Made by a program: the position numbers and the translations under genes. From positions 1-64,000 of the forward strand of contig CAIUVX010000184.1 in assembly GCA_903902705.1 (NCBI GenBank): a DNA stretch of 64,000 nucleotides, written 5' to 3'. The notes under the pieces are model-generated. The model did not search any database. It saw only the letters and a program-made list of their open reading frames with translations, and was not told where the DNA came from. The DNA is from an uncultured Methylococcales bacterium. Lineage in GTDB: Bacteria > Pseudomonadota > Gammaproteobacteria > Methylococcales > Methylomonadaceae. Shown here piece after piece: positions 47,739-62,444 of this stretch. Numbering within the stretch: position 1 is the stretch's first letter; each line of letters begins with the position of its first letter.

Positions 47739-48276
47739 ATAAACCGCCTCCTGTGAATTTATCGATTATCTACACGCTACATTCAAATTCCATAAGCTAG
47801 TATTCAAAAAGATGAATTGATCATCGTGACCGTTTCGATGACGGTAAACGTGACGCAAGCAATTCATGCGTTTTAAGCCCGCAAAAACGTGTTCAATCGG
47901 CATTCTAAGGGCTGAAATGACACGGTTTTCTGCTTTTTCATCGGTCGTCAACTGTGCGTTTTTGGGCTTTTTCTTGGGCATCATCACGTTTTTATGGTGG
48001 TGTTGAACGTCTTGAAAGCCTTTGTCCAGCCACAGAGTTCGGTCGGGCGGAATAAATCGAAAGGAGGTTTCTTTATCAAAGAGTTTCTTATCGTGATAGT
48101 GACCCGCCTTAGTGGGGCTTAGAAAAAGAATCTTTTTTTCAAGATTCCCCATGACGATATTTTTGCGCGTGTGACAGCCTTGTTTGCCTGAATAGTGCTT
48201 ACGCTGAGTTTTTCCGTTACTTGAGCGTTGCGCTCAGTACCGTCAATCAGCAAGTCTTTCTCGTGCGGAAAAAGCT
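47731..48276 (-). mobile_element. IS5-family element copy 1, 5'-truncated, transposase frameshifted
   Basis: Terminal gctgccaaataa (47731-47742) and C-terminal transposase ORF 47766-48152 (DKETSFRFIPPDRTLWLDKGFQDVQ...RMPIEHVFAGLKRMNCLRHVYR). Confidence 0.85.
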
Positions 48277-49278
48277 AGATTTGCTGCCAAATAACGCTAA
48301 AATAAGTAAAAACGTCCTACAACAGCAAACTTCCAAAAAAAAACGATGCTTAACTTGAATCGAATAGACAAAAAAGAACGCTTAATGAGAGCCACGATAG
48401 GTCTAACCTTGAAGCAGTTTGACGAATTATTGGGTGATTGTATGAAAAAGCCTTGGATGCGGACAGAAGCAAACGGGGTTGTGAGCGTAAAAAAAGGGCG
48501 GGGAAGAAGCCAAGGCTGGCAAGCACACGCCTGAAGTTATTTTTCGTGCTGATTTATCTGAAATGCTATCTGACGTATGATGTGTTGGGGATACTGTTTG
48601 ACCTCGACAGTGGCACAATTGTGCTTGGATAAAACACCTACTGCCGATTTTAGAGACGACGTTGGGCAAAAAACAGGTGTTGCCTGCCCGCAAAATCCGC
48701 AATGTTGAGGAGTTTTTACGGCTTTTTCCACACAAGAAGGATTTGTTGATTGACGGTACTGAGCGCAGAACGCAACGCTCAAACTCAGCGTAAGCATTAT
48801 TCAGGTAAACAAGGCTGTCACACGCGCAAAAATCTCGTCATGAGGAATCCTGAAAAAAATATTTTATTGCTGACTCCCACCAAAGCGGGTCGTTATCATG
48901 ATAAGAAACTCTTTGATAAAGAAACCTCCTTTCGATTTATTCCGCCCGACCGAACTCTGTGGCTGGACAAAGGCTTTCAAGGCGTTCAACCCCCCCCTAA
49001 AAAGGTGATGATGCCCAAGAAAAAACCCAAAAATGGACAGTTGACGACCGATGAAAAAGCAGAAAACCGTGTCATTTCAGCCCTTAGAATGCCGATTGAA
49101 CACGTTTTTGCGGGCTTAAAACGCATGAATTGCTTGCGTCACGTCTACCGTAATCGCAACGGTCAAAATGATCAATTCATCTTTTTGAGTGCTGGCTTAT
49201 GGAATTTGAATTTGGCGTGCAGATAATCGATAAATTCACAGGAGGAGGTCTGGTTTTTATTTATTTGGCAGCATTTCT
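48277..49278 (+). mobile_element. IS5-family element copy 2, full length in opposite orientation, transposase with frameshifts
   Basis: Terminal repeats gctgccaaataa (48283) and ttatttggcagc (49261-49272); HTH_Tnp_4-like N-terminal ORF 48346-48534 and DDE C-terminal ORF 48750-49226. Confidence 0.85.
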
Positions 49279-50423: not shown

Positions 50424-51038
50424 CTATTCAGATTCTTTTTTTGAATCAAATAAAAAATGTGCCATTTTTTTAGCTTTGGTTTTTAAATAATCCATGTTGT
50501 CATCGTGTGCGACTACTTCAATAGGAATGCGATCTGCTACCTTGATACCCAGTTTGGTCAATGCTTCTATTTTCTTAGGATTATTGGTCATCAGTTTGAC
50601 TGATTTTATTCGTAGACTTTCCAGTATTAATGCGGCAACGTCATATTCACGCTCATCGGCGAGATAGCCTAGGTGAATATTGGCATCAACAGTATCCATG
50701 CCTTGATCTTGCAAGTTATAGGCTTGGAGCTTTTTCAATAAGCCAATCCCTCGACCTTCTTGGCGTAGATAAATCACTACACCAAAACCCGCATCATTAA
50801 TATATTGCATCGCCATTGCTAATTGCTCACCACAATCACAGCGTCTTGAACCTAATACGTCCCCCGTAAAGCATTCGGAATGAATACGCACGGGTACATT
50901 TTCTTGATTTGCCACCTCCCCTTTCACTAAGGCAATATGCTCTTTGTCATCAAGAGTGTTACTGTAATAATGCAGAATAAACTCGCCATGCTGAGTGGGA
51001 AGAGGCGTTTGTACTAAATCTTCTAATTGTGGCTTCAC
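50424..51038 (-). CDS. ribA: GTP cyclohydrolase II
   Basis: VPVRIHSECFTGDVLGSRRCDCGEQL, YLRQEGRGIGLLKKLQAYNLQDQGMDTVDAN, LMTNNPKKIEAL. Confidence 0.95.
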   Translation of the reverse strand: MKPQLEDLVQTPLPTQHGEFILHYYSNTLDDKEHIALVKGEVANQENVPVRIHSECFTGDVLGSRRCDCGEQLAMAMQYINDAGFGVVIYLRQEGRGIGLLKKLQAYNLQDQGMDTVDANIHLGYLADEREYDVAALILESLRIKSVKLMTNNPKKIEALTKLGIKVADRIPIEVVAHDDNMDYLKTKAKKMAHFLFDSKKESE

Positions 51039-51193: not shown

Positions 51194-51811
51194 ATGAAGC
51201 TAGACAGTGCCGACATACAACAACGTTATAATCGTATTGCCCCGTATTTTGAGGGGTTGGAAGCCGTTATCGAAGGTCTGATTTTTAAAGGCTGGCGCAA
51301 AAAATGTTGGGAAAAAGCGCAGGGTCATCACATCCTCGAAGTGGGAGTAGGCACAGGTAAAAACTTTGATTACTATCCATCTGATGCCAGAATCACCGCG
51401 ATTGATTTCAGTAAAGAAATGCTCAAACGAGCCGAACAAAAACGCACTCGAAAAAATGTCACGGTTGAATTGGATTTAATGGATGTGCAGTCTTTGTACT
51501 TTGCCGATAATAGTTTTGATACCGTGATTGCTACGTTTGTGTTCTGCTCTGTGCCATTGCCATTAAAAGGTTTAAAAGAGCTGTACCGCGTGTGTAGACC
51601 TGGCGGACAAGTAGTTTTGCTAGAGCATGTCTTAAGTTCAAAACCCGCGCTTGCCAGTGTGATGAATTTTGTTAATCCTGCCATCGTTGCCCTAGTGGGG
51701 GCTAATATTAATCGCAATACCGTTAAAAATGTACAATCCTGCGCGTTTAGCTCGGTTCATGTAGATGAAAGTAGTGGCGATATTATTAAATTAATTGTGG
51801 CAAAAAAATAA
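51194..51811 (+). CDS. Class I SAM-dependent methyltransferase (UbiE/phospholipid methyltransferase-like)
   Basis: ILEVGVGTGKNFDYYPSDARITAIDFSKEMLKRAEQK, SFDTVIATFVFCSVPLPLKGLKELYRVCRPGGQVVLLEHV. Confidence 0.9.
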   Translation: MKLDSADIQQRYNRIAPYFEGLEAVIEGLIFKGWRKKCWEKAQGHHILEVGVGTGKNFDYYPSDARITAIDFSKEMLKRAEQKRTRKNVTVELDLMDVQSLYFADNSFDTVIATFVFCSVPLPLKGLKELYRVCRPGGQVVLLEHVLSSKPALASVMNFVNPAIVALVGANINRNTVKNVQSCAFSSVHVDESSGDIIKLIVAKK

Positions 51812-51814
51812 CAG

Positions 51815-51840
51815 AATAAAACAGCTTTAGCTGTTTTATT
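51815..51840 (+). terminator. Hairpin terminator-like, downstream of the 51194 methyltransferase
   Basis: aataaaacagc-ttta-gctgttttatt perfect 11-bp stem. Confidence 0.7.
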
Positions 51841-51898
51841 CAATAGTAAAGCATTGAACTCCTGATGCTCTATGTAAACACTGAAAAAATACCAAACC

Positions 51899-54800
51899 AT
51901 GCAAAAAACCACTGATTCATCCAAATCCAACGCAATAGCCGAATTATCACCTGCTCTTGTAGACAAATTTCAACAAGCTTTTAATTTGCATCAACAAGGA
52001 CAACTGGAACAAGCAGACATTCTCTATACAGAGCTATTAAAAGAACAGCCTCAACATATTGATGCCCTGCATTTTTCAGGTGTATTAGCCAATCAGTGTG
52101 GACAAGCACAACGTGCGGTGGATTTAATCAGTTTAGCACTAGAAATAGACGCTAGTAACGCGGCAGCTCACTCAAACCTTGGTCTCGCCCTCTATGCTCT
52201 CAGTCATTTTGATGAAGCTCTTGCCAGTTACAACAAAGCCTTAGCCCTTAAGCCAAGCAATGCCGAGACGCACTATAACTGTGGCAACGCACTACTGGCT
52301 CTCAATCGTTTTAACGAAGCCCTTACCCGTTATAATCAGGTCTTAACTATCAAGCCAGATTATGTTGATGCGCATTGGGGGGCAAGTTGGTGTTATCTAT
52401 CACTAGGCAACTTTGATAAGGGGTGGAAAGAATATGAATGGCGTTGGCAGACGAATGACTTCAAGAATTACGTCCGAAATTTTTCTAAGCCGCAGTGGTT
52501 TGGTGAAGAATCTTTACAAGGAAAAACGATCCTTCTGCATAACAACGAACAGGGGCTAGGCGATACCTTACAATTTTGTCGCTATGCAAAACGAGTGGCT
52601 GACTTAGGGGCGAGGGTTCTTTTAGAAGTGCCAAAAACTTTATTGGGTTTACTTGCCAAGCTTGAAGGAGTCACTCAATTAATCGCTCAGGGAAGCGTCT
52701 TACCCGCTTTCGATTTTCACTGTCCTTTGCTCAGCCTACCGTTGGCATTTAAAACCTACCTAGATTCAATTCCTGTTAATAACCCTTATTTATTCAGCGA
52801 ACCCGACAAAGTAAAGCATTGGCAAGCCGTCCTTGGTGAAAAAACCAAGCCGCGTGTCGGTCTAGTTTGGGCAGGCAATGCCGTACATAAAAATGACCGT
52901 AATCGCTCTTTAGCACTGCATGAATTGCTGCCTTTGCTCATGCCTCACTACCAATTTATCAGTTTACAAAAGGAATTGCGTGACACCGACAAGGAGTTAT
53001 TGGCACAACAGCCGCTGCTACAACATTACGGTGAACAAATTAACGATTTTACCGATACAGCCGCTCTGTGTGAGTTAATGGATTTGGTTATCAGCGTTGA
53101 CACTTCTGTTGCTCACTTGGCAGCGGCAATGGGCAAACCAACGTGGATTTTATTGCCCTATAATCCTGATTGGCGATGGCTAATAGATCGCGAAGATAGC
53201 CCTTGGTATCCTACTGCCCGCTTGTTCAGACAAAAAAAACACGGCGATTGGCAAGGTGTGATTGAATGTGTACAACGTGAACTTGTTAATCTACCCGCAT
53301 TAGCGCGACCCATTATTGAAGTGTCACAACGAAATCAGCCAGTATCAAACCATATCGAGTTATTTTCACAAGCACTTAGCTTGCATCAACAAGGGCAATT
53401 GGAACACGCTGAAGTGTTGTATGAACAACAACTAAAAAATCAACCTCAACATATTGATGCCTTGCATTTTTTAGGCGTGTTAGTTAACCAGCGCGGACAA
53501 TCACAACGGGCGGTGGAATTAATCAGTCAAGCACTTGAAATCGCGCCTAATAATGCAGCCGCTCATTCAAACCTCGGTCTCGCGCTTCAAGAACTCGAGC
53601 GTTTCGATGAAGCCATTGCCAGTTATGATCGCAGCTTAGCTTTAAAACCTAATAACGCCGAAGCACATTACAATCGTGGTAACGCACTGCTCGCACTCAC
53701 GCGTTTTGATGAAGCTATTCTTGACTATGAACGAGCTTTAGCTATCAAGCCAGACTATGCACAAGCATTCTCTAATCTGGGCAATGTACTATTAGCTGTT
53801 AAACGTTATCAGCAAGCACTTTCCCACTATGAAAGTGCGTTGACTATCAAGCCAGATTTCGCCGAAGCACTTGCTGGTAGAGGTGCTATATTGAATGGTC
53901 TCAAACGCTTTACCGAAGCACTCAGCAGCTATGAACACGCTCTTGCCATCAAGCCAGATTTAGAGTTTATTCGCGGTACTCGGCTACATACAAAAATGAA
54001 TATTTGTGCGTGGCATGAGTTTGATCATGATCTTGATGAATTAACCAAAGCCATAGAACGTGGCGAAAAAGTATCGATACCCTTTACCATCCAAGCAGTT
54101 TCTTCATCCGCCGCCTTGCAGAAAAAAGCTGCCGAGATTTATACTCAAGCAAAACACCCTAGTCATTTTCTGTCACCACCGTTAATCAAACACGCACATT
54201 CAAAAATTAAAGTTGGCTATTTTTCATCGGATTTTCGCAATCATCCTGTTGCTCTCTTGACTGCTGAATTATTTGAATGCCATGACCGTTCACGATTTGA
54301 AATTATCGCCTTCTCTTTTCATGAGGCGAGTGATAAAGATGATATGCGCTTAAGATTAGAAGCAGCATTTGACCAGTTTATTGATGTCAGTGAACAATCC
54401 GATGAACAAGTTGTACGATTGGCTAGACAGCTTGAAATCGACATTGCCGTTGATTTGAATGGTTGTACCGAAGGCTGTAGAACAGATATTTTCGCGTTAC
54501 GAGCCGCGCCTATTCAAGTGAATTATATTGGTTATCTAGGCACAATGGGCGCGGATTACATTGATTATTTACTGGCCGATTCCGTGTTAATTCCGACCGA
54601 ACACCAAGCCTATTACCAAGAAAAAATTGCTTATTTACCGTATAGCTTTCAAGTTAACGACAGCACGCTACAGATTTCTACTAACAAGGTAATTCGCGCA
54701 GAACTCGGTTTACCTGAACAGGGTGTGGTGTTTTGTTGTTTTAATAACCATTACAAAATCACTCCTACGGTTTTTGCCAGTTGGATGCGAATACTGAACC

Positions 54801-57800
54801 GCGTTAAGGGTAGCGTATTATGGTTAATTGGTGGCAATATTGAGACTGAAACAAACTTACGGCTGAGCGCGACGGCTCAAGGCGTTGCTGCCCAGCGATT
54901 AGTATTTGCTCAACGCACACCAATGCCTGAGTATTTAGCACGTCATCGTCTCGCTGATGTATTCTTAGATACCAGCCCGTATAATGCAGGCGCGACTGCC
55001 AGCGCGGCATTATGGGCAGGACTGCCGCTAATAACTTTTTTAGGCACAAGCTATTCTAGCAGAATGGCTGCCAGTTTACTGAATGCTATTGGCTTGCCTG
55101 AGTTAGTGACCCAATCTGTGAGCGATTATGAAACACTGGCAATCCAACTGGCTACCCATCCTGAACAACTTGCCGCAGTTAAACAAAAGTTATCCGATAA
55201 CCGCCTAACTACGCCATTATTTAACACTGCCCTGTTTACCCAGCATATTGAATCTGCTTTTCAAATGATGTTTGACCGTTATCAAGCTGGACTCTCTCCA
55301 GATCATATTTATGTACCCGCCACTGGTGCGGAGGCTAACTTGAAACCCGTTCATCAAAGTGAACTAACGTCTGATAGTAGCGATAAATTTCAACGCGCAG
55401 TTAATTATCATCAACAAGGATTATTGGTAGAAGCTGAGCGGTTGTATCAAGAAATATTGCTCACTGAGCCTCAACACGCGGACAGCCTGCATTTGCTAGG
55501 TGCGATTGCAAAACAGCGTGGACAGGCACAACTTGCTGTTGATTTAATTAACCAAGCTCTGGATATAAATCCTAACAATGCTGCCGCACATTCAAATATT
55601 GGGCTTGCTTACCAAGAACTTAATCGCTTTGAATTAGCACTTGCTAGTTATAACCGCGCCTTAAGCCTTGATCCACATTATGCCGATGCCTATTTTAATC
55701 GCGGTACTTTACTGTTAGCCCATAAAGAATTTGATCAGGCTCTGAGCAGTTATGATCAGGCACTTATTATCAAGCCAGATTTTATTGAAGCCTTATTCAG
55801 TCGTGGCATTGTATTAACAAATCTTAAGCGTCATGATCAAGCACTGGCTAGCTATGACAGTGCTTTAAGCATCAAGCCAGACTATATAGAAGCCTTGATT
55901 AACAAAGCGAATGTATTACAAGAACTTAAAAGTTATGACGAAGCTTTAGCAAGTTGTGAACGTGCCTTAGCTATCAAGCCAGAGTATGCTGAAGCATTAT
56001 TTGCTTGTGCGGTAATATTGCAAGACATGAAACGCTTTAAAGAGGCGATTACCTTTTATGAACGCGCCTTTACCATCAAGTCAGACATGGTGTTTCTGTT
56101 CGGTGATTACCTGTATATCAAGAGGAATATTTGCGATTGGACTGAATTTGACGCGCATCTTAATAAATTGGCAAATGCGATAGAAGTCGGCGAAAAAGTA
56201 GCTACACCATTTACTTTACATTCCATTTATTCATCGCCTGATCTACTAAAAAAAGCGGCGGAAACCTATGCAAAACAAAAGTATCCGTGCAATTTTCTAT
56301 TACCTCCCTTGGTAAAAAACACGCACTCAAAAATAAAAATCGGTTATTTTTCATCAGATTTTTGTCAACATGCCGTGTCCTATTTAATAGCAGAGTTGTT
56401 TGAACGCCATGATCGCTCACGTTTTGAAATTATCGCTTTTTCTTTTCATGCGACCTCGCACAAAGATGATATGCGTTTAAGGCTGGAAGCGGCATTTGAC
56501 CAGTTTATTGATGTTAGCCTGTTAGCAGATAAACAAATTGTACAACTGGCCAGACAGATTGGTTGCGATATTGCTGTTGATCTCAATGGTTTTACTGCCA
56601 ATTCCCGCACAGGTATTTTTGCTATGCGAGCAGCCCCTATTCAAGTTAGTTATCTAGGTTTTCTAGGGACGATGGGTACGGATTATATGGACTATTTACT
56701 GGCTGATTCCGTGTTAATTCCGACTGAACAGCAAATTTATTACAACGAAAAAATTGCTTATTTACCCAATAGTTTTCAGGTCAATGACAGCACACTAAGT
56801 ATTTCAAATAAAGTAATTACTCGTGCAGAATTTGGTTTACCTGAACAGGGTTTTGTATTTTGTTGCTTTAATAACCATTATAAAATCACACCAGCGGTTT
56901 TTAAGAGTTGGATGCGGATATTGCACCATGTTAATGGTAGTGTGTTATGGTTACTTGGCGATAACACTGATGCTGAAAAAAATTTACAGCGTGCAGCAAG
57001 CGAACAAGGTATTTCTAGCCAGCGTTTAATATTTGCCCAATCTTTACCAATGGACGAGTACTTGGCTCAATGTCGCCTTGCGGATTTATTCTTAGATACC
57101 AGCCCGTATAATGCAGGCGCGACTGCCAGCGCGGCATTATGGGCAGGACTGCCGCTAATCACTTTTTTAGGCACAAGTTATTCAAGCAGAATGGCGGCAA
57201 GCTTACTCAATGCCATTGGTTTGCCAGAACTGATTACCACCAACCTAGAAGACTACGAAGCACTGGCAATTCAACTTGCCACTCATCCTGAACAACTTAC
57301 CGCTGTTAAACAAAAGTTAGCCGATAACCGCCTAACTACGCCATTATTTAATACCGTATTATTTACCCAGCATATTGAATCGGCTTTTCAAATGATGTTT
57401 GATCGCTATCAAGTAGGCTTAGCTCCAGATCATCTGTATGTACCCACACAGATACCCACTATTAAAACTCTGCAACAACCATTACCAACAATCCACATTA
57501 CAAACACGGTAGTTATTGAAAATCCAACAGAAAAATCCAATCCACCAAGCTTATTGGCTAAAATTGCCCAAAAACCCGCACAACTGTTTGCGGCAATAAA
57601 CGTTTTTGGCAAACAAAAAAACTCACCATTAGCCAAACAGCAAGCACTCACATTAACGCCCGACGAAGTTAATACATTGGAACAAGCGCAACAATTACAT
57701 CATCAGAGTCAATTAGCGGCGGCTGAATTATTATACCAAGAGCTTTTAAAAACACAGCCTAAACACGCCGAAGCATTACGCTGTGTAGCGATGATAAAAA

Positions 57801-60800
57801 AGCAGCGTCAAACGCGAAACACTGTTGATTCAAGCAAGCAAACACTGCCCGCCCATTCTAATAGCGTACAAATACACTTTAATAAAAAAATTGCGTTACA
57901 ACATATTGATCGTTTGGATAAAACTGCTGCCAGCGTTGAAAGCACCTTAGTCATCGAAGAAAATACTGTTGAAGAGTTGATAAATCGTGGCAATGAGCTA
58001 GAAGACCTTGGGCGTTTCGATGATGCCCTTGCCAGTTATGACCGAGCTTTATCTATTAATCCCGACTATGCCAGAGCGCATTCTAATCGAGGTAATGTCC
58101 TGCAAAGCTTGAAACGCTTTGATGAAGCACTAGATAGCTATGATCGAGCGTTGGCAATTAGACCAGACTATCCAGAAGCCTTTTATAACCGTGGTAATAC
58201 CTTGCAAGCTTGCAAACGCTTTCAAGAAGCCCTTGTCAGTTATGACAGAGCATTAAGCATTAAACCAGATTTCATTGATGCTCTGATAGGGCGTGGTAAT
58301 GCACTGCAAGATTGCAGACAATATTCTGAGGCATTGATAAGCTATGATCGTGCGTTGGCTATTCAGCCAAACTACGCAGAAGCACATTCCAATCGTGGCA
58401 TCGTGCTAAAAGATATGAAACGTTATGACGAAGCCTTAGCCTGTTATGAACGCGCCCTCGCCATCAAACCAAACTTAGAATTTACGTTTGGCGATTTTCT
58501 CATCATGAAAATCACTATTTGTGATTGGAATAACCTTGACAGTCATCTAACTCAGCTTATCAAAAAAATAGAACGCGGTGAAAAAACATCGACACCTTTT
58601 CCTATGCTTGCCGTGTCTTCATCCGCCGCCTTACAAAAAAAAGTAGCGAGTTGTTATGCCAATGCAAAATATCCCAGTCATTTTTTGTTGCCACCGCTAG
58701 TAAAACACGCACATTCAAAAATTAAACTCGCTTATTTTTCAGCAGATTTTCGTATTCATGCTACTACCCAATTAATCGCTGAATTATTTGATCGTCATGA
58801 TAGATCACGGTTTGAAATTATCGCTTTTTCTTTTCATTCAGCAAACCATAAGGACGCGATGCGCTTAAGATTAGAAGCGGTATTTGACCAATTTATTGAT
58901 GTCAGTCAGCAATCCGATGAACAGGTGGTGCGACTGGCTAGAGAGTTAGAGATTGATATTGCGGTTGATTTAAAAGGCTTTACCGATGGTTGCCGACCCA
59001 ACATTTTTGCCATGCGGGCAGCACCCATTCAAGTGAGTTATTTAGGTTATCCAGCCACGATGGGTGCGGATTACATCGACTACTTACTGGCTGATTCGGT
59101 ATTAATTCCAAAAGAATATCAGCACTATTACACAGAATTTTGTGTCTATCTACCGAATAGCTATCAGGTCAATGATACCAGTCGAGTCATTGCCAATAGA
59201 CAATTCACTCGTGCAGAACTAGGCTTACCTGAGCAGGGTTTTGTATTTTGCTGTTTTAATAACAATTATAAAATTACCCCTGTGGTATTTGATAGTTGGA
59301 TGCGGATATTACATCACGTTGAAGGCAGTGTGTTATGGCTATTGGAAGACAATGCCACTGCCGCAAGAAACTTACGTTTAGCAGCAACAGCGCGAGGCAT
59401 AAATTCTGAACGGATAATTTTTGCTCAACGCTTAGCCTTACCTGAACATTTAGCGCGGCATCGCTTAGCGGATTTATTTTTAGATACTCTACCCTGTAAT
59501 GCCCACACTACCACCAGTGATGCGCTATGGGCAGGATTACCTGTGTTGACGTGTATGGGTGAAGCATTTGCCAGTCGTGTAGCAGCTAGCTTGCTTAGTG
59601 CAGTTGGCTTACCCGAATTGATTACCACCAATCTTGACGATTACCAAGCACTGGCAATCCAACTCGCCACTCATCCAGAACAACTCGACGCACTGAAACA
59701 AAAGTTAGCCGATAACCGCCTGACTACGCCATTGTTTGATACTGAGCTATTTACCCAACATATTGAATCTGCTTTTCAAATGATGTTTGACCGCTATCAA
59801 GCAGGACTCGCTCCCAATCATATTTATGTGTCGGCACAAGAAGATGTTGCCACCGCGTTACCCTGCGCTATTGAAATACCACAACAAAACCAAGCAACCC
59901 AAACGACTGTCGATAAATTTCAACAAGCACTTAGCTTGCATCAACAATTGCAGTTGGAACAAGCTGAAGTGTTGTATCAAGAGATATTGCACACCGATCC
60001 TCAACACGTTGATGTGCTACATTTTTTGGGCGTATTAAAAAATCAAAATGGACAACCACAACGTGCGGTAGAGTTAATCCAGCAGTCACTCACTATAAAT
60101 GCCAATAATTCTGCGGCATATTCCAATTTAGGTACGGTGTTTCAAGCACTTAATCGCTTTGATGACGCATTGATTTGCTACGACAAGGTATTAGAGCTGA
60201 CCCCTGACAGTGTTGATGCTCTCTTAAGTCAGGCTAATTTATTACAAACGCTTAACCGTCCTGATGAAGCCTTGACCTGCTATAACAGGGCATTGACTAT
60301 CAAGCCAGATTTTATCGACACATTGATAGGGCGTGGGATTGTTTTACAAATTCTCAATCGTTTTGATGAGGCACTCATCAATTACGACCTGCTATTATCT
60401 ATCGACACCCATCATGCCGAAGCACTTTTTGGTCAGGCTAATACGCTATACAAGCTTAAACGTTTAGAGGAAGCACTTACCAGTTATAACCGTTCTTTAG
60501 CGATTAATCCGAATAGTTTTGAGGCACTTTATAACCGAGGTGTCGTCCTTGCAGACCTTAACCGTGTTGATGAAGCCATTGTCAGCTATCAAGATACCTT
60601 AGCCATTAACCCAGATTATGCGGAAGTGCATAATAATCTGGGAATTCTCCTCAAAAATCAACATCGCTACCTTGAAGCCGAAGCTTGTTATCGACGCGCA
60701 ATAGAGATTAAACTCGATTATAGTGAAGCACATTGTAATCTTATCAATTTACTAAAAGATCAAGGACAACTTTCACAAGCAGAAATCAGTTTACAGACTG

Positions 60801-62227
60801 CATTAATGGCGATTCCCGATAGTGTAGAGATGCACTTTATACAAATCATTATGTCGTTACCCATAATCCCTAAAAGTGCGGCTGCTTCGATTTTAGTCCC
60901 TAGTCAATTCGACGATGCCCTGACAAATTTATCAAATTGGATAAACTCCTCAGTAAGTCATCAAGAATCCCTAAACAAGGCGGAGCTTCTGCCTTTGCCT
61001 TTTCTGTTAGCTTATCGAACTGGCAATCATGTTCAGCGATTGTCGCGTTATGGCGATTTAGTCACAAGCCATAGTAACTCTGTGTCTGTTAAACCACTAG
61101 CAAACAAAATACGCATGGTGGTCGTTTCACATCATTTTTACCGTCATTCGGTTTGGGATGTTATTACTCGCGGTTTGTTAGTTAATTTAGATCGTAGCCG
61201 TTTTGAGCTAATACTCTATCATTTAGGTAAAATCGAAGACCAAGAAACCACGTTTGCCAAATCATTAGCAAATGAATGGCGCGACACGCACACGATTACT
61301 GAGTTAGCGGGCTGGCTAACTGCACTGAGAACCGATGCAGCTGATGTTATTTTTTACCCAGAAATTGGCATGGATCCTCTATCAGCCAGATTAGCCTCAC
61401 ATCGTTTTGCAACTTTACAAATTGCAAGCTGGGGACATCCCATCACCACAGGATTATCGACTATCGACCTGTATTTTTCAGGGGAATTACTTGAGTCACC
61501 GAATGCGGATAACCATTACCGTGAACGCTTGATACGCTTGCCTAACACTGGCTGTTGCACAACCCCGATTAATATTTCACCTGAACCATTAGAGCCTGAA
61601 CTTGTAGCCCAATTGACTGCAAGCCGTGGTGTGCGCTTTATAATTGCACAAACTATCTACAAGTTTGATCCTGTCGATGACGCGCTTTACGCTACTATTG
61701 CCAGTGTGGTGCATGACAGTGTATTTATTTTGCTGAGTGACCGTCAGGATACTTGGGCAACTAATCAGATAGTTGCCAGACTTGAGCAATGTTTTGTTGA
61801 TCGTGGCTTAAATCCAAAACAACATCTGCTAGTGATTCCGAGGCAATCAATGGAAAAATTTCAGACCTTGCTTGATTTATGTGATGTCTATCTCGATTGC
61901 CCCTCATTTTCTGGCTATACCACTGCGTGGCAGGCAGTACATCGAGGCTTACCCATCGTAACCCTAGAAGGTGAGTTTATGCGCCAGCGATTGGCAGCAG
62001 GATTGTTGCGTAAAATTGGACTTACTGACACGATTGCTAGTTCGCGTGAGGACTATGTGAAAATTGCGGCACAACTGGCTGAAGAATGCCGCAATCCCAA
62101 GCACCGTGCAGCGCGTCGTCATGCCCTTAAAGACGCTGCATCAAAAGCGGACAATGACCTCAGTGTGGTACGCGCATTTGAACAAAGTGTGATAAATACG
62201 TTAGCTATCAACTCAGAAAATGGGTGA
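51899..62227 (+). CDS. Giant (3442 aa) TPR/multi-glycosyltransferase protein: TPR+GT9-like, three TPR+SPINDLY/OGT(GT41)-like modules, and a divergent C-terminal TPR+GT41-like module
   Basis: Many TPRs (e.g. [35 protein letters not shown]); repeated IKxxYFSxDFxxH..., [36 protein letters not shown], FCCFNNxYKITPxVFxSWMRIL, FLDTxPxNAxxTxSxALWAGLP blocks. Confidence 0.92.
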   Translation: [3442 protein letters not shown]

Positions 62228-62254: not shown

Positions 62255-62287
62255 GAGGGAATCAAAAAACATATTTTTGATTCCCTC
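62255..62287 (+). terminator. Strong hairpin terminator after the giant gene
   Basis: gagggaatcaaaaa-acata-tttttgattccctc, 14-bp perfect stem 25 nt after the stop. Confidence 0.8.
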
Positions 62288-62302: not shown

Positions 62303-62444
62303 ATAGCTAACACACAATAAAATGATAGCGTTCGTGGTGAGCTGTGAGCTTGTCGAACAGTCGAACTACATTCACATCATTCGACAAGCTCATGACAGGC
62401 TCAGTGCGAACGGTTTTGCAATCATTTTATCGACGGTTAGCTAT
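62303..62444. repeat. REP/MITE-like long imperfect palindrome
   Basis: Outer arms atagctaac...aataaaatgat / atcattttat...gttagctat and inner gcgttcgtggtgag...gagcttgtcgaac / ttcgacaagctc...cagtgcgaacgg. Confidence 0.75.

What the first reader, a model, noticed from the sequence alone, without database searches (positions are those of the whole stretch)
51899..62227. 3442-aa single ORF chaining about five glycosyltransferase-like domains with TPR arrays
Seen: one uninterrupted 10.3-kb ORF. By eye the order is TPR + GT9-like (52.4-53.3 kb), TPR + SPINDLY/OGT-like (54.2-55.3), TPR + OGT-like (56.3-57.4), a Lys/Gln/Pro-rich linker (57.44-57.65), TPR + OGT-like (58.7-59.8), then TPR + a divergent GT41-like domain (61.1-62.2). 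Known: bacterial TPR-SPINDLY proteins usually have one catalytic unit, and GT41 enzymes glycosylate proteins or peptides. Inference: a processive or multi-acceptor glycosylation megaprotein, possibly built by tandem duplication of an ancestral TPR-OGT gene. It has its own terminator and may be functionally separate from the upstream O-antigen cluster.
Basis: partly seen in the sequence, partly recalled or inferred. Interest (0 to 1): 0.85.

Follow-up and report, generated by a model that had tools for sequence, protein, structure and literature searches.

The report
Five-module chained protein-glycosyltransferase megagene
A methane-oxidising bacterium carries one 3,442-residue protein made of five glycosyltransferase machines strung end to end, and sister species carry the same gene with a different number and order of machines, which looks like a recombining, modular system for putting sugars on proteins.

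Summary
The ORF is real (51899-62227, 3442 aa). It holds five repeated units, each starting with the same ~83-aa TPR cap, then TPR repeats, then a glycosyltransferase: GT9-like, OGT, OGT, OGT (all GT41), and a divergent SPINDLY/NGT-like GT41. Four sister Methylococcales genomes keep the gene at the same ribA-methyltransferase locus but with other modules: OGTx5-M5 (4433 aa), OGTx3-GT9x3-M5 (4450 aa), OGTx2-GT9-OGT-M5 (3370 aa), and one cut by a contig end. G007's locus is empty. In other genera TPR-OGT and TPR-GT9 are separate adjacent genes. Module 3 is a mosaic of its own orthologue and module 2, evidence of gene conversion. Two of the three OGT modules (a genus-wide subclass) have lost the donor-ribose Asp (hOGT D925 -> Ala) whose loss inactivates human OGT, yet stay under purifying selection. 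I read it as a single-chain, multi-step protein glycosylation enzyme that diversifies by module shuffling. Substrate, donors and activity are untested. It is a new variant of a known kind (bacterial TPR-OGT/GT41).

The parts
51899..62227 (+). Megagene ORF, 3442 aa, five TPR-glycosyltransferase modules
51899..53338 (+). Module 1: TPR cap (51950-52198), TPRs, GT9-like domain (52376-53323)
   Evidence: PF01075 above gathering cut-off; AF2 mean pLDDT 74, best fold hits are TPR+GT-B enzymes SPY/OGT; cap
53339..55336 (+). Module 2: TPR cap (53345-53593), TPRs, OGT domain (53966-55318), 'GAT..A' donor motif (G1031, A1036), keeps H782 and K953
55337..57439 (+). Module 3: TPR cap (55367-55618), TPRs, OGT domain (56096-57433), 'GAT..A' motif (G1740, A1745), keeps H1491 and K1662; C-lobe shared with module 2
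57440..57655 (+). Lys/Gln/Pro-rich linker (aa 1848-1919)
57440..59848 (+). Module 4: linker, degenerate TPR cap (57656-57901), TPRs, OGT domain (58481-59833) with canonical HTT..D motif (H2536, D2541), H2287, K2458
59849..62224 (+). Module 5: TPR cap (59897-60148), about 7 TPRs, divergent GT41 domain (60866-62224), H3083, K3255, Q3345 at the ribose position, NGT-like P-x-IGMD and GHPxTT
   Evidence: AF2 mean pLDDT only 61
51194..51811 (+). Class I SAM methyltransferase; syntenic neighbour, present also where the megagene is absent, so probably unrelated
50424..51038 (-). GTP cyclohydrolase II (ribA), syntenic marker
51814..51841 (.). Perfect hairpin between methyltransferase and megagene (terminator-like)
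   Evidence: -15.1 kcal/mol, z -6.8
62255..62287 (.). Hairpin after the megagene stop (terminator-like, 14 pairs)
   Evidence: region -23.5 kcal/mol, z -5.75

Best explanation
A cytoplasmic, single-chain, multi-step protein glycosylation enzyme built as a string of complete TPR-glycosyltransferase genes fused in frame. Each TPR array grips the polypeptide acceptor. The canonical OGT module (module 4) most likely transfers a sugar from a UDP-sugar to Ser/Thr; the GT9-like module 1 and the SPINDLY/NGT-like module 5 add or extend with other sugars; modules 2 and 3, whose donor pocket is altered in a conserved way, either use a different nucleotide sugar or hold the acceptor without transferring. 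Homologous recombination between the near-repeat modules changes the number, order and donor lobes of modules, so related species carry different glycosylation programs at the same locus. Shown: modules, locus, variation between species, mosaic module 3, motif loss, purifying selection. Inferred: catalysis, division of labour, acceptor.
For: Five modules, each with the same cap. Same locus, different module content in G001/G002/G003/G006. Empty locus in G007 although it has ribA-MTase. TPR-OGT and TPR-GT9 occur as separate adjacent genes in G150 (4 OGT + GT9) and G229, and adjacent OGT arrays in G250, so fused and unfused forms point to one pathway. Module 3 N-half groups with G006.m2 (100/100), C-half with WIN.m2 and G006.m1 (100/98). 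dN/dS about 0.23-0.28 for modules 2, 3, 4 and 5 against G006. Catalytic His and Lys positions kept in modules 2-5. Family precedent: Caulobacter FlmG uses its TPR part to bind the acceptor and its GT part to transfer (PMC7591256); HMW1C of the same GT41 family acts on its protein in the cytoplasm (PMC3983070).
Against: No activity, substrate or donor is known. No flagellin and no nonulosonate synthase in the genome, so the FlmG route does not apply. Modules 2 and 3 lack the Asp that human OGT needs. The genome has its own HMW1C-type enzyme, so its two-partner-secreted exoproteins need not be the acceptors. No dedicated substrate gene was recognised beside the megagene. All same-genus sequences are draft assemblies.
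Confidence: 0.5

Rival explanations
1. Multi-site rather than multi-step: all modules add the same single sugar to many Ser/Thr sites of a long repetitive surface protein, and more modules simply raise capacity.
For: OGT genes lie beside a giant Thr/Ser-rich LTTxQ repeat protein in G018 and, by coordinates, in G060; acceptors of this kind would suit several heads on one chain. The genome has nine TPS exoprotein matches.
Against: Modules are of three different GT kinds (GT9, OGT, SPY/NGT-like) and two OGT subclasses with different donor motifs, which argues against one sugar. No LTTxQ protein was found in this genus.
Confidence: 0.25
2. Mostly a scaffold: modules 2 and 3 (and perhaps 5) are catalytically dead acceptor-binding units and only module 4 (and module 1) transfers.
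For: D925A in human OGT abolishes activity mainly by disrupting UDP-GlcNAc binding (PMC4703063); the equivalent residue is Ala/Gly in 13 of 14 GAT modules of the genus and Asp in 7/7 HTT modules and 22/22 readable modules of other genera.
Against: Catalytic His and Lys equivalents are kept, purifying selection is as strong as on module 4, and the change is one of a set of correlated substitutions, which fits a changed donor as well.
Confidence: 0.2
3. Assembly or annotation artefact: separate tandem genes wrongly joined or multiplied.
For: G000 and its sisters are draft genomes; the repeats are similar.
Against: Modules differ by 20-30% in DNA and the longest exact repeat is 73 bp; four other genus assemblies have multi-module ORFs at the locus without frame breaks; two-module fusions occur in G060 and G201, assembled in 8 contigs each.
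Confidence: 0.04

Closest known systems
Bacterial TPR-OGT (XcOGT, PDB 2jlb; Thermobaculum terrenum OGT, PDB 5djs)
   Same: TPR array plus GT41 GT-B domain, catalytic His and Lys kept
   Different: One catalytic unit there; here three OGT units plus GT9-like and SPY/NGT-like units in one chain, two with an altered donor motif
FlmG of Caulobacter crescentus (flagellin O-glycosyltransferase, PMC7591256)
   Same: N-terminal TPR part binds the acceptor, C-terminal GT-B part transfers, cytoplasmic
   Different: FlmG is 596 aa with one unit and uses pseudaminic acid on flagellin; this genome has neither flagellin nor a NeuB/PseI-type synthase
HMW1C-like N-glucosyltransferases (AaNGT PDB 8p0o, ApHMW1C 3q3e)
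   Same: Module 5 aligns over most of its catalytic domain and shares the P-x-IGMD and GHPxTT stretches
   Different: Module 5 has TPRs instead of the HMW1C N-terminal domains; a true HMW1C-type gene exists elsewhere in the same genome
SPINDLY protein O-fucosyltransferase (PDB 7y4i, 8dtf)
   Same: TPR + GT41; best sequence match of the module 5 profile (E 3e-22)
   Different: Single unit; module 5 has Gln where SPY has Glu at the ribose position (alignment)
Multi-domain bacterial glycosyltransferases (Pseudomonas flagellin GT Fgt1, capsule multienzymes such as PDB 8qoy)
   Same: Several sugar-transferring domains in one chain (from my own knowledge; 8qoy appeared as a fold hit)
   Different: Not strings of TPR-GT41 units, and to my knowledge not reported to vary in module number between sister species

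Membership tests
GT41 / Glyco_transf_41 (modules 2, 3, 4) | Significant match to PF13844 over both lobes | tested here: met
   E 3.8e-86, 2.2e-88, 3.8e-89, two stretches each
GT41 (module 5) | Match above PF13844 cut-off | tested here: met
   61.6 bits against 25, C-lobe stretch only; profile aligns over both lobes of SPY and AaNGT
O-GlcNAc transferase (functional OGT) | Catalytic His (hOGT H558) and Lys (K842), modules 2-4 | tested here: met
   H782/K953, H1491/K1662, H2287/K2458
O-GlcNAc transferase (functional OGT) | Donor-ribose Asp (hOGT D925), module 4 | tested here: met
   D2541
O-GlcNAc transferase (functional OGT) | Donor-ribose Asp (hOGT D925), modules 2 and 3 | tested here: not met
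   A1036 and A1745; the H920 position is also Gly
O-GlcNAc transferase (functional OGT) | Transfers GlcNAc to Ser/Thr of proteins | not testable with these tools
   needs an enzyme assay
HMW1C-like NGT (module 5) | HMW1C N-terminal domains (PF18071/PF18254) and NGTferase score | tested here: not met
   Module 5 scores 62.1 bits against a cut-off of 1000 and is preceded by TPRs; the separate C26 gene has both N-terminal domains
GT9 heptosyltransferase-like (module 1) | PF01075 match and GT-B fold | tested here: inconclusive
   Above cut-off but only 32 residues matched; AF2 pLDDT 74, GT-B enzymes as fold hits with TM about 0.34 over query length
FlmG-type flagellin glycosylation | Flagellin substrate and nonulosonate pathway in the genome | tested here: not met
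   No PF00669, no PF03102

The most novel reading that the evidence does not exclude
A collinear, modular 'assembly line' for protein glycans: each TPR-GT module carries out one step on a threaded polypeptide, GAT-type modules use a donor other than UDP-HexNAc, and recombination between modules rewrites the glycan from species to species, as module swapping does in polyketide synthases.
Probability: 0.2. Interest if true: 0.88.

Novelty: new variant of a known kind. Interest (0 to 1): 0.62.

Why it matters
The characterised GT41 enzymes I know of have one catalytic unit, and what sets their acceptors and sugar number is poorly understood. A natural series of one orthologous locus with 0, 5, 6 or 7 modules of three kinds, with clear cassette boundaries, makes it directly testable how module number and order relate to glycan structure and acceptor choice. 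The genus-wide subclass with the D925-to-Ala change under purifying selection tests whether the GT41 fold can work without the canonical donor contact.

Tried and rejected
Pilin as substrate: no prepilin pattern in the window; pilin genes lie on other contigs of this genome; a prepilin-like ORF lies about 1.4 kb beyond ribA in G002, but the genes between are unrelated, so I treat this as linkage only. Flagellin route: rejected. LTTxQ repeat protein as acceptor in this genus: not found, though present beside OGT genes in two other genera. Module 5 as an HMW1C enzyme: rejected on N-terminal domains and score. Neighbouring methyltransferase as partner: it is present without the megagene in G007, G011 and G008, so probably housekeeping. 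The module 5 structure model is weak (pLDDT 61), so its fold hits only confirm GT41, not a subfamily. Literature searches found no report of multi-unit GT41 proteins; the library holds open-licence papers only.

Full report
Where it is. The window is contig C184 of a 3.97-Mb, 210-contig genome. Its nearest named relatives by module 5 are MAGs labelled Methylococcales: LacPavin_0818_WC45_MAG_42_49 (93% identity), C19_metabat.bin.15 (74%) and E2_concoct.bin.53 (71%). It is therefore a methanotroph-type gammaproteobacterium (order from the record titles; genus not named by the tools).

The ORF 51899-62227 is uninterrupted and 3442 aa long. Pfam gives a GT9-like domain, three strong GT41 domains and one divergent GT41 domain, each behind TPRs. 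Modules 2-4 match XcOGT and human/fly OGT over both lobes. Module 5 matches SPINDLY, Thermobaculum OGT and HMW1C-like NGT at similar strength. A structure model of module 1 (mean pLDDT 74) and of module 5 (61) both hit TPR+GT-B enzymes of the OGT/SPY group first; because the TM scores are low, this supports the general fold only.

It is modular in a strict sense. All five units begin with a homologous ~83-aa TPR cap at aa 18, 483, 1157, 1920 (degenerate) and 2667, the last four starting 8 to 75 residues behind the preceding GT domain. Some single OGT and GT9 genes of other genera begin with a weaker match to the same cap, at aa 25-43. The megagene is thus a head-to-tail in-frame fusion of whole TPR-GT genes. 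In other genera the same parts occur unfused and adjacent: G150 has four TPR-OGT genes and one TPR-GT9 gene in a row, G250 five OGT genes, G229 OGT and GT9 genes together.

It varies between sister species at one locus. G006 has OGTx5-M5 (4433 aa), G002 OGTx3-GT9x3-M5 (4450 aa), G003 OGT-OGT-GT9-OGT-M5 (3370 aa), G001 OGTx4 cut by the contig end, all downstream of the same methyltransferase and ribA; G004's contig ends inside its first OGT module at that place. G007, 99% complete, has ribA and the methyltransferase but no megagene there; its 3-module gene (OGT-GT9-OGT, 2281 aa) is elsewhere. The nearest species, G006, shares orthologues of modules 2, 3, 4 and 5 but lacks module 1 and has two more OGT modules. 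The flanking methyltransferase is 96% identical between window and G006, the OGT modules 79-86% and module 5 93%.

Recombination has reshaped it. In trees of the two lobes, module 3 groups with G006.m2 on its N-half (100/100) and with WIN.m2 and G006.m1 on its C-half (100/98): the donor-binding lobe of module 3 appears to have been overwritten by that of module 2. The last 195 nt of the three OGT modules are 86% identical to the reference copy, against 67-80% in the other 300-nt blocks compared.

Two OGT subclasses. In this genus 7 OGT modules have the canonical HTT..D donor motif and 14 have GAT, with Ala 12 times, Gly once and Asp once at the ribose position; all 22 readable modules of eight genomes from other genera have the Asp. 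The residue equals human OGT D925, which contacts the donor ribose; D925A abolishes activity, mainly by disrupting UDP-GlcNAc binding (PMC4703063). The GAT modules keep the catalytic His and Lys and modules 2 and 3 show dN/dS about 0.24, the same as module 4, so they are not decaying. The changes come as a set (H to G, T to A, D to A, R to L, V to M). I take this as a remodelled donor site; whether it binds another donor or none is open.

How rare it is. Among 369 sampled genomes of the class, 28 have a close OGT and no ORF other than this one holds more than two at that threshold. Within the order, two OGT modules in one ORF occur in G032, G060 and G201, and four more divergent ones in G022. 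So chaining itself recurs in the order, but counts of five to seven with mixed kinds were seen only in this genus.

How it probably works. The family precedents (OGT, SPY, HMW1C, FlmG) act on proteins in the cytoplasm or nucleocytoplasm, and in FlmG the TPR part alone binds the acceptor (PMC7591256). I infer a soluble enzyme that grips a polypeptide by several TPR arrays and applies several transferases to it. The mixture of three GT kinds favours several steps over one sugar at many sites. The acceptor is unknown: the genome has no flagellin and no nonulosonate synthase, nine TPS-domain matches and a separate HMW1C-type enzyme. In G018 and G060 OGT genes lie next to giant Thr/Ser-rich repeat proteins, and in G197 next to a flagellin-like gene (identified by eye from its N-terminus), so long surface proteins are the likeliest class.

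Transcription. A hairpin separates the methyltransferase from the megagene and another follows its stop, so it is probably transcribed alone.

Limits. No reads, no expression, no biochemistry; all same-genus comparisons are drafts; the literature library is partial.

Noticed in passing
L074 10590-12440 (G000:C26): A HMW1C-type N-glucosyltransferase (HMW1C_N and HMw1_D2 domains, NGTferase 659 bits) beside a DegP-like protease ORF; weak module 5 matches of similar size occur in several other genomes of the genus.
   Followed up: partly
L109 2310-7253 and 8493-13520 (G000:C131): Two two-partner-secretion exoproteins (ESPR + TPS domains) that carry WD40-like repeats and a C-terminal caspase domain (Peptidase_C14): an unusual secreted architecture.
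   Followed up: no
L038 3422-6583 (G000:C104): A fusion of FkbM methyltransferase, TPRs and a GAT-type OGT domain (1053 aa), suggesting O-methylated sugars in the same kind of pathway.
   Followed up: no
L066 12409-18999; G060:C1:1736660-1742911: Giant Thr/Ser-rich LTTxQ repeat proteins next to TPR-OGT genes in two genera: candidate acceptors.
   Followed up: partly
L057 4828-5487, L058 2898-3644, L060 4653-5330: Small secreted-looking Ser/Thr-rich proteins (20-26% S+T) with a similar N-terminus and no Pfam match, beside TPR-OGT arrays in three genomes.
   Followed up: partly
L062 4720-5925 and 6900-12286 (G197): Two tandem TPR-OGT genes directly beside a flagellin-like gene in a single-contig genome.
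   Followed up: no
window 47766-48152 and 48750-49226: Remnants of IS5-family transposases between the polysaccharide cluster and the ribA locus.
   Followed up: no
window 62330-62420: Inverted copies of a TTCGACAAGCTCA-like motif downstream of the megagene, possibly a REP-type palindrome.
   Followed up: no
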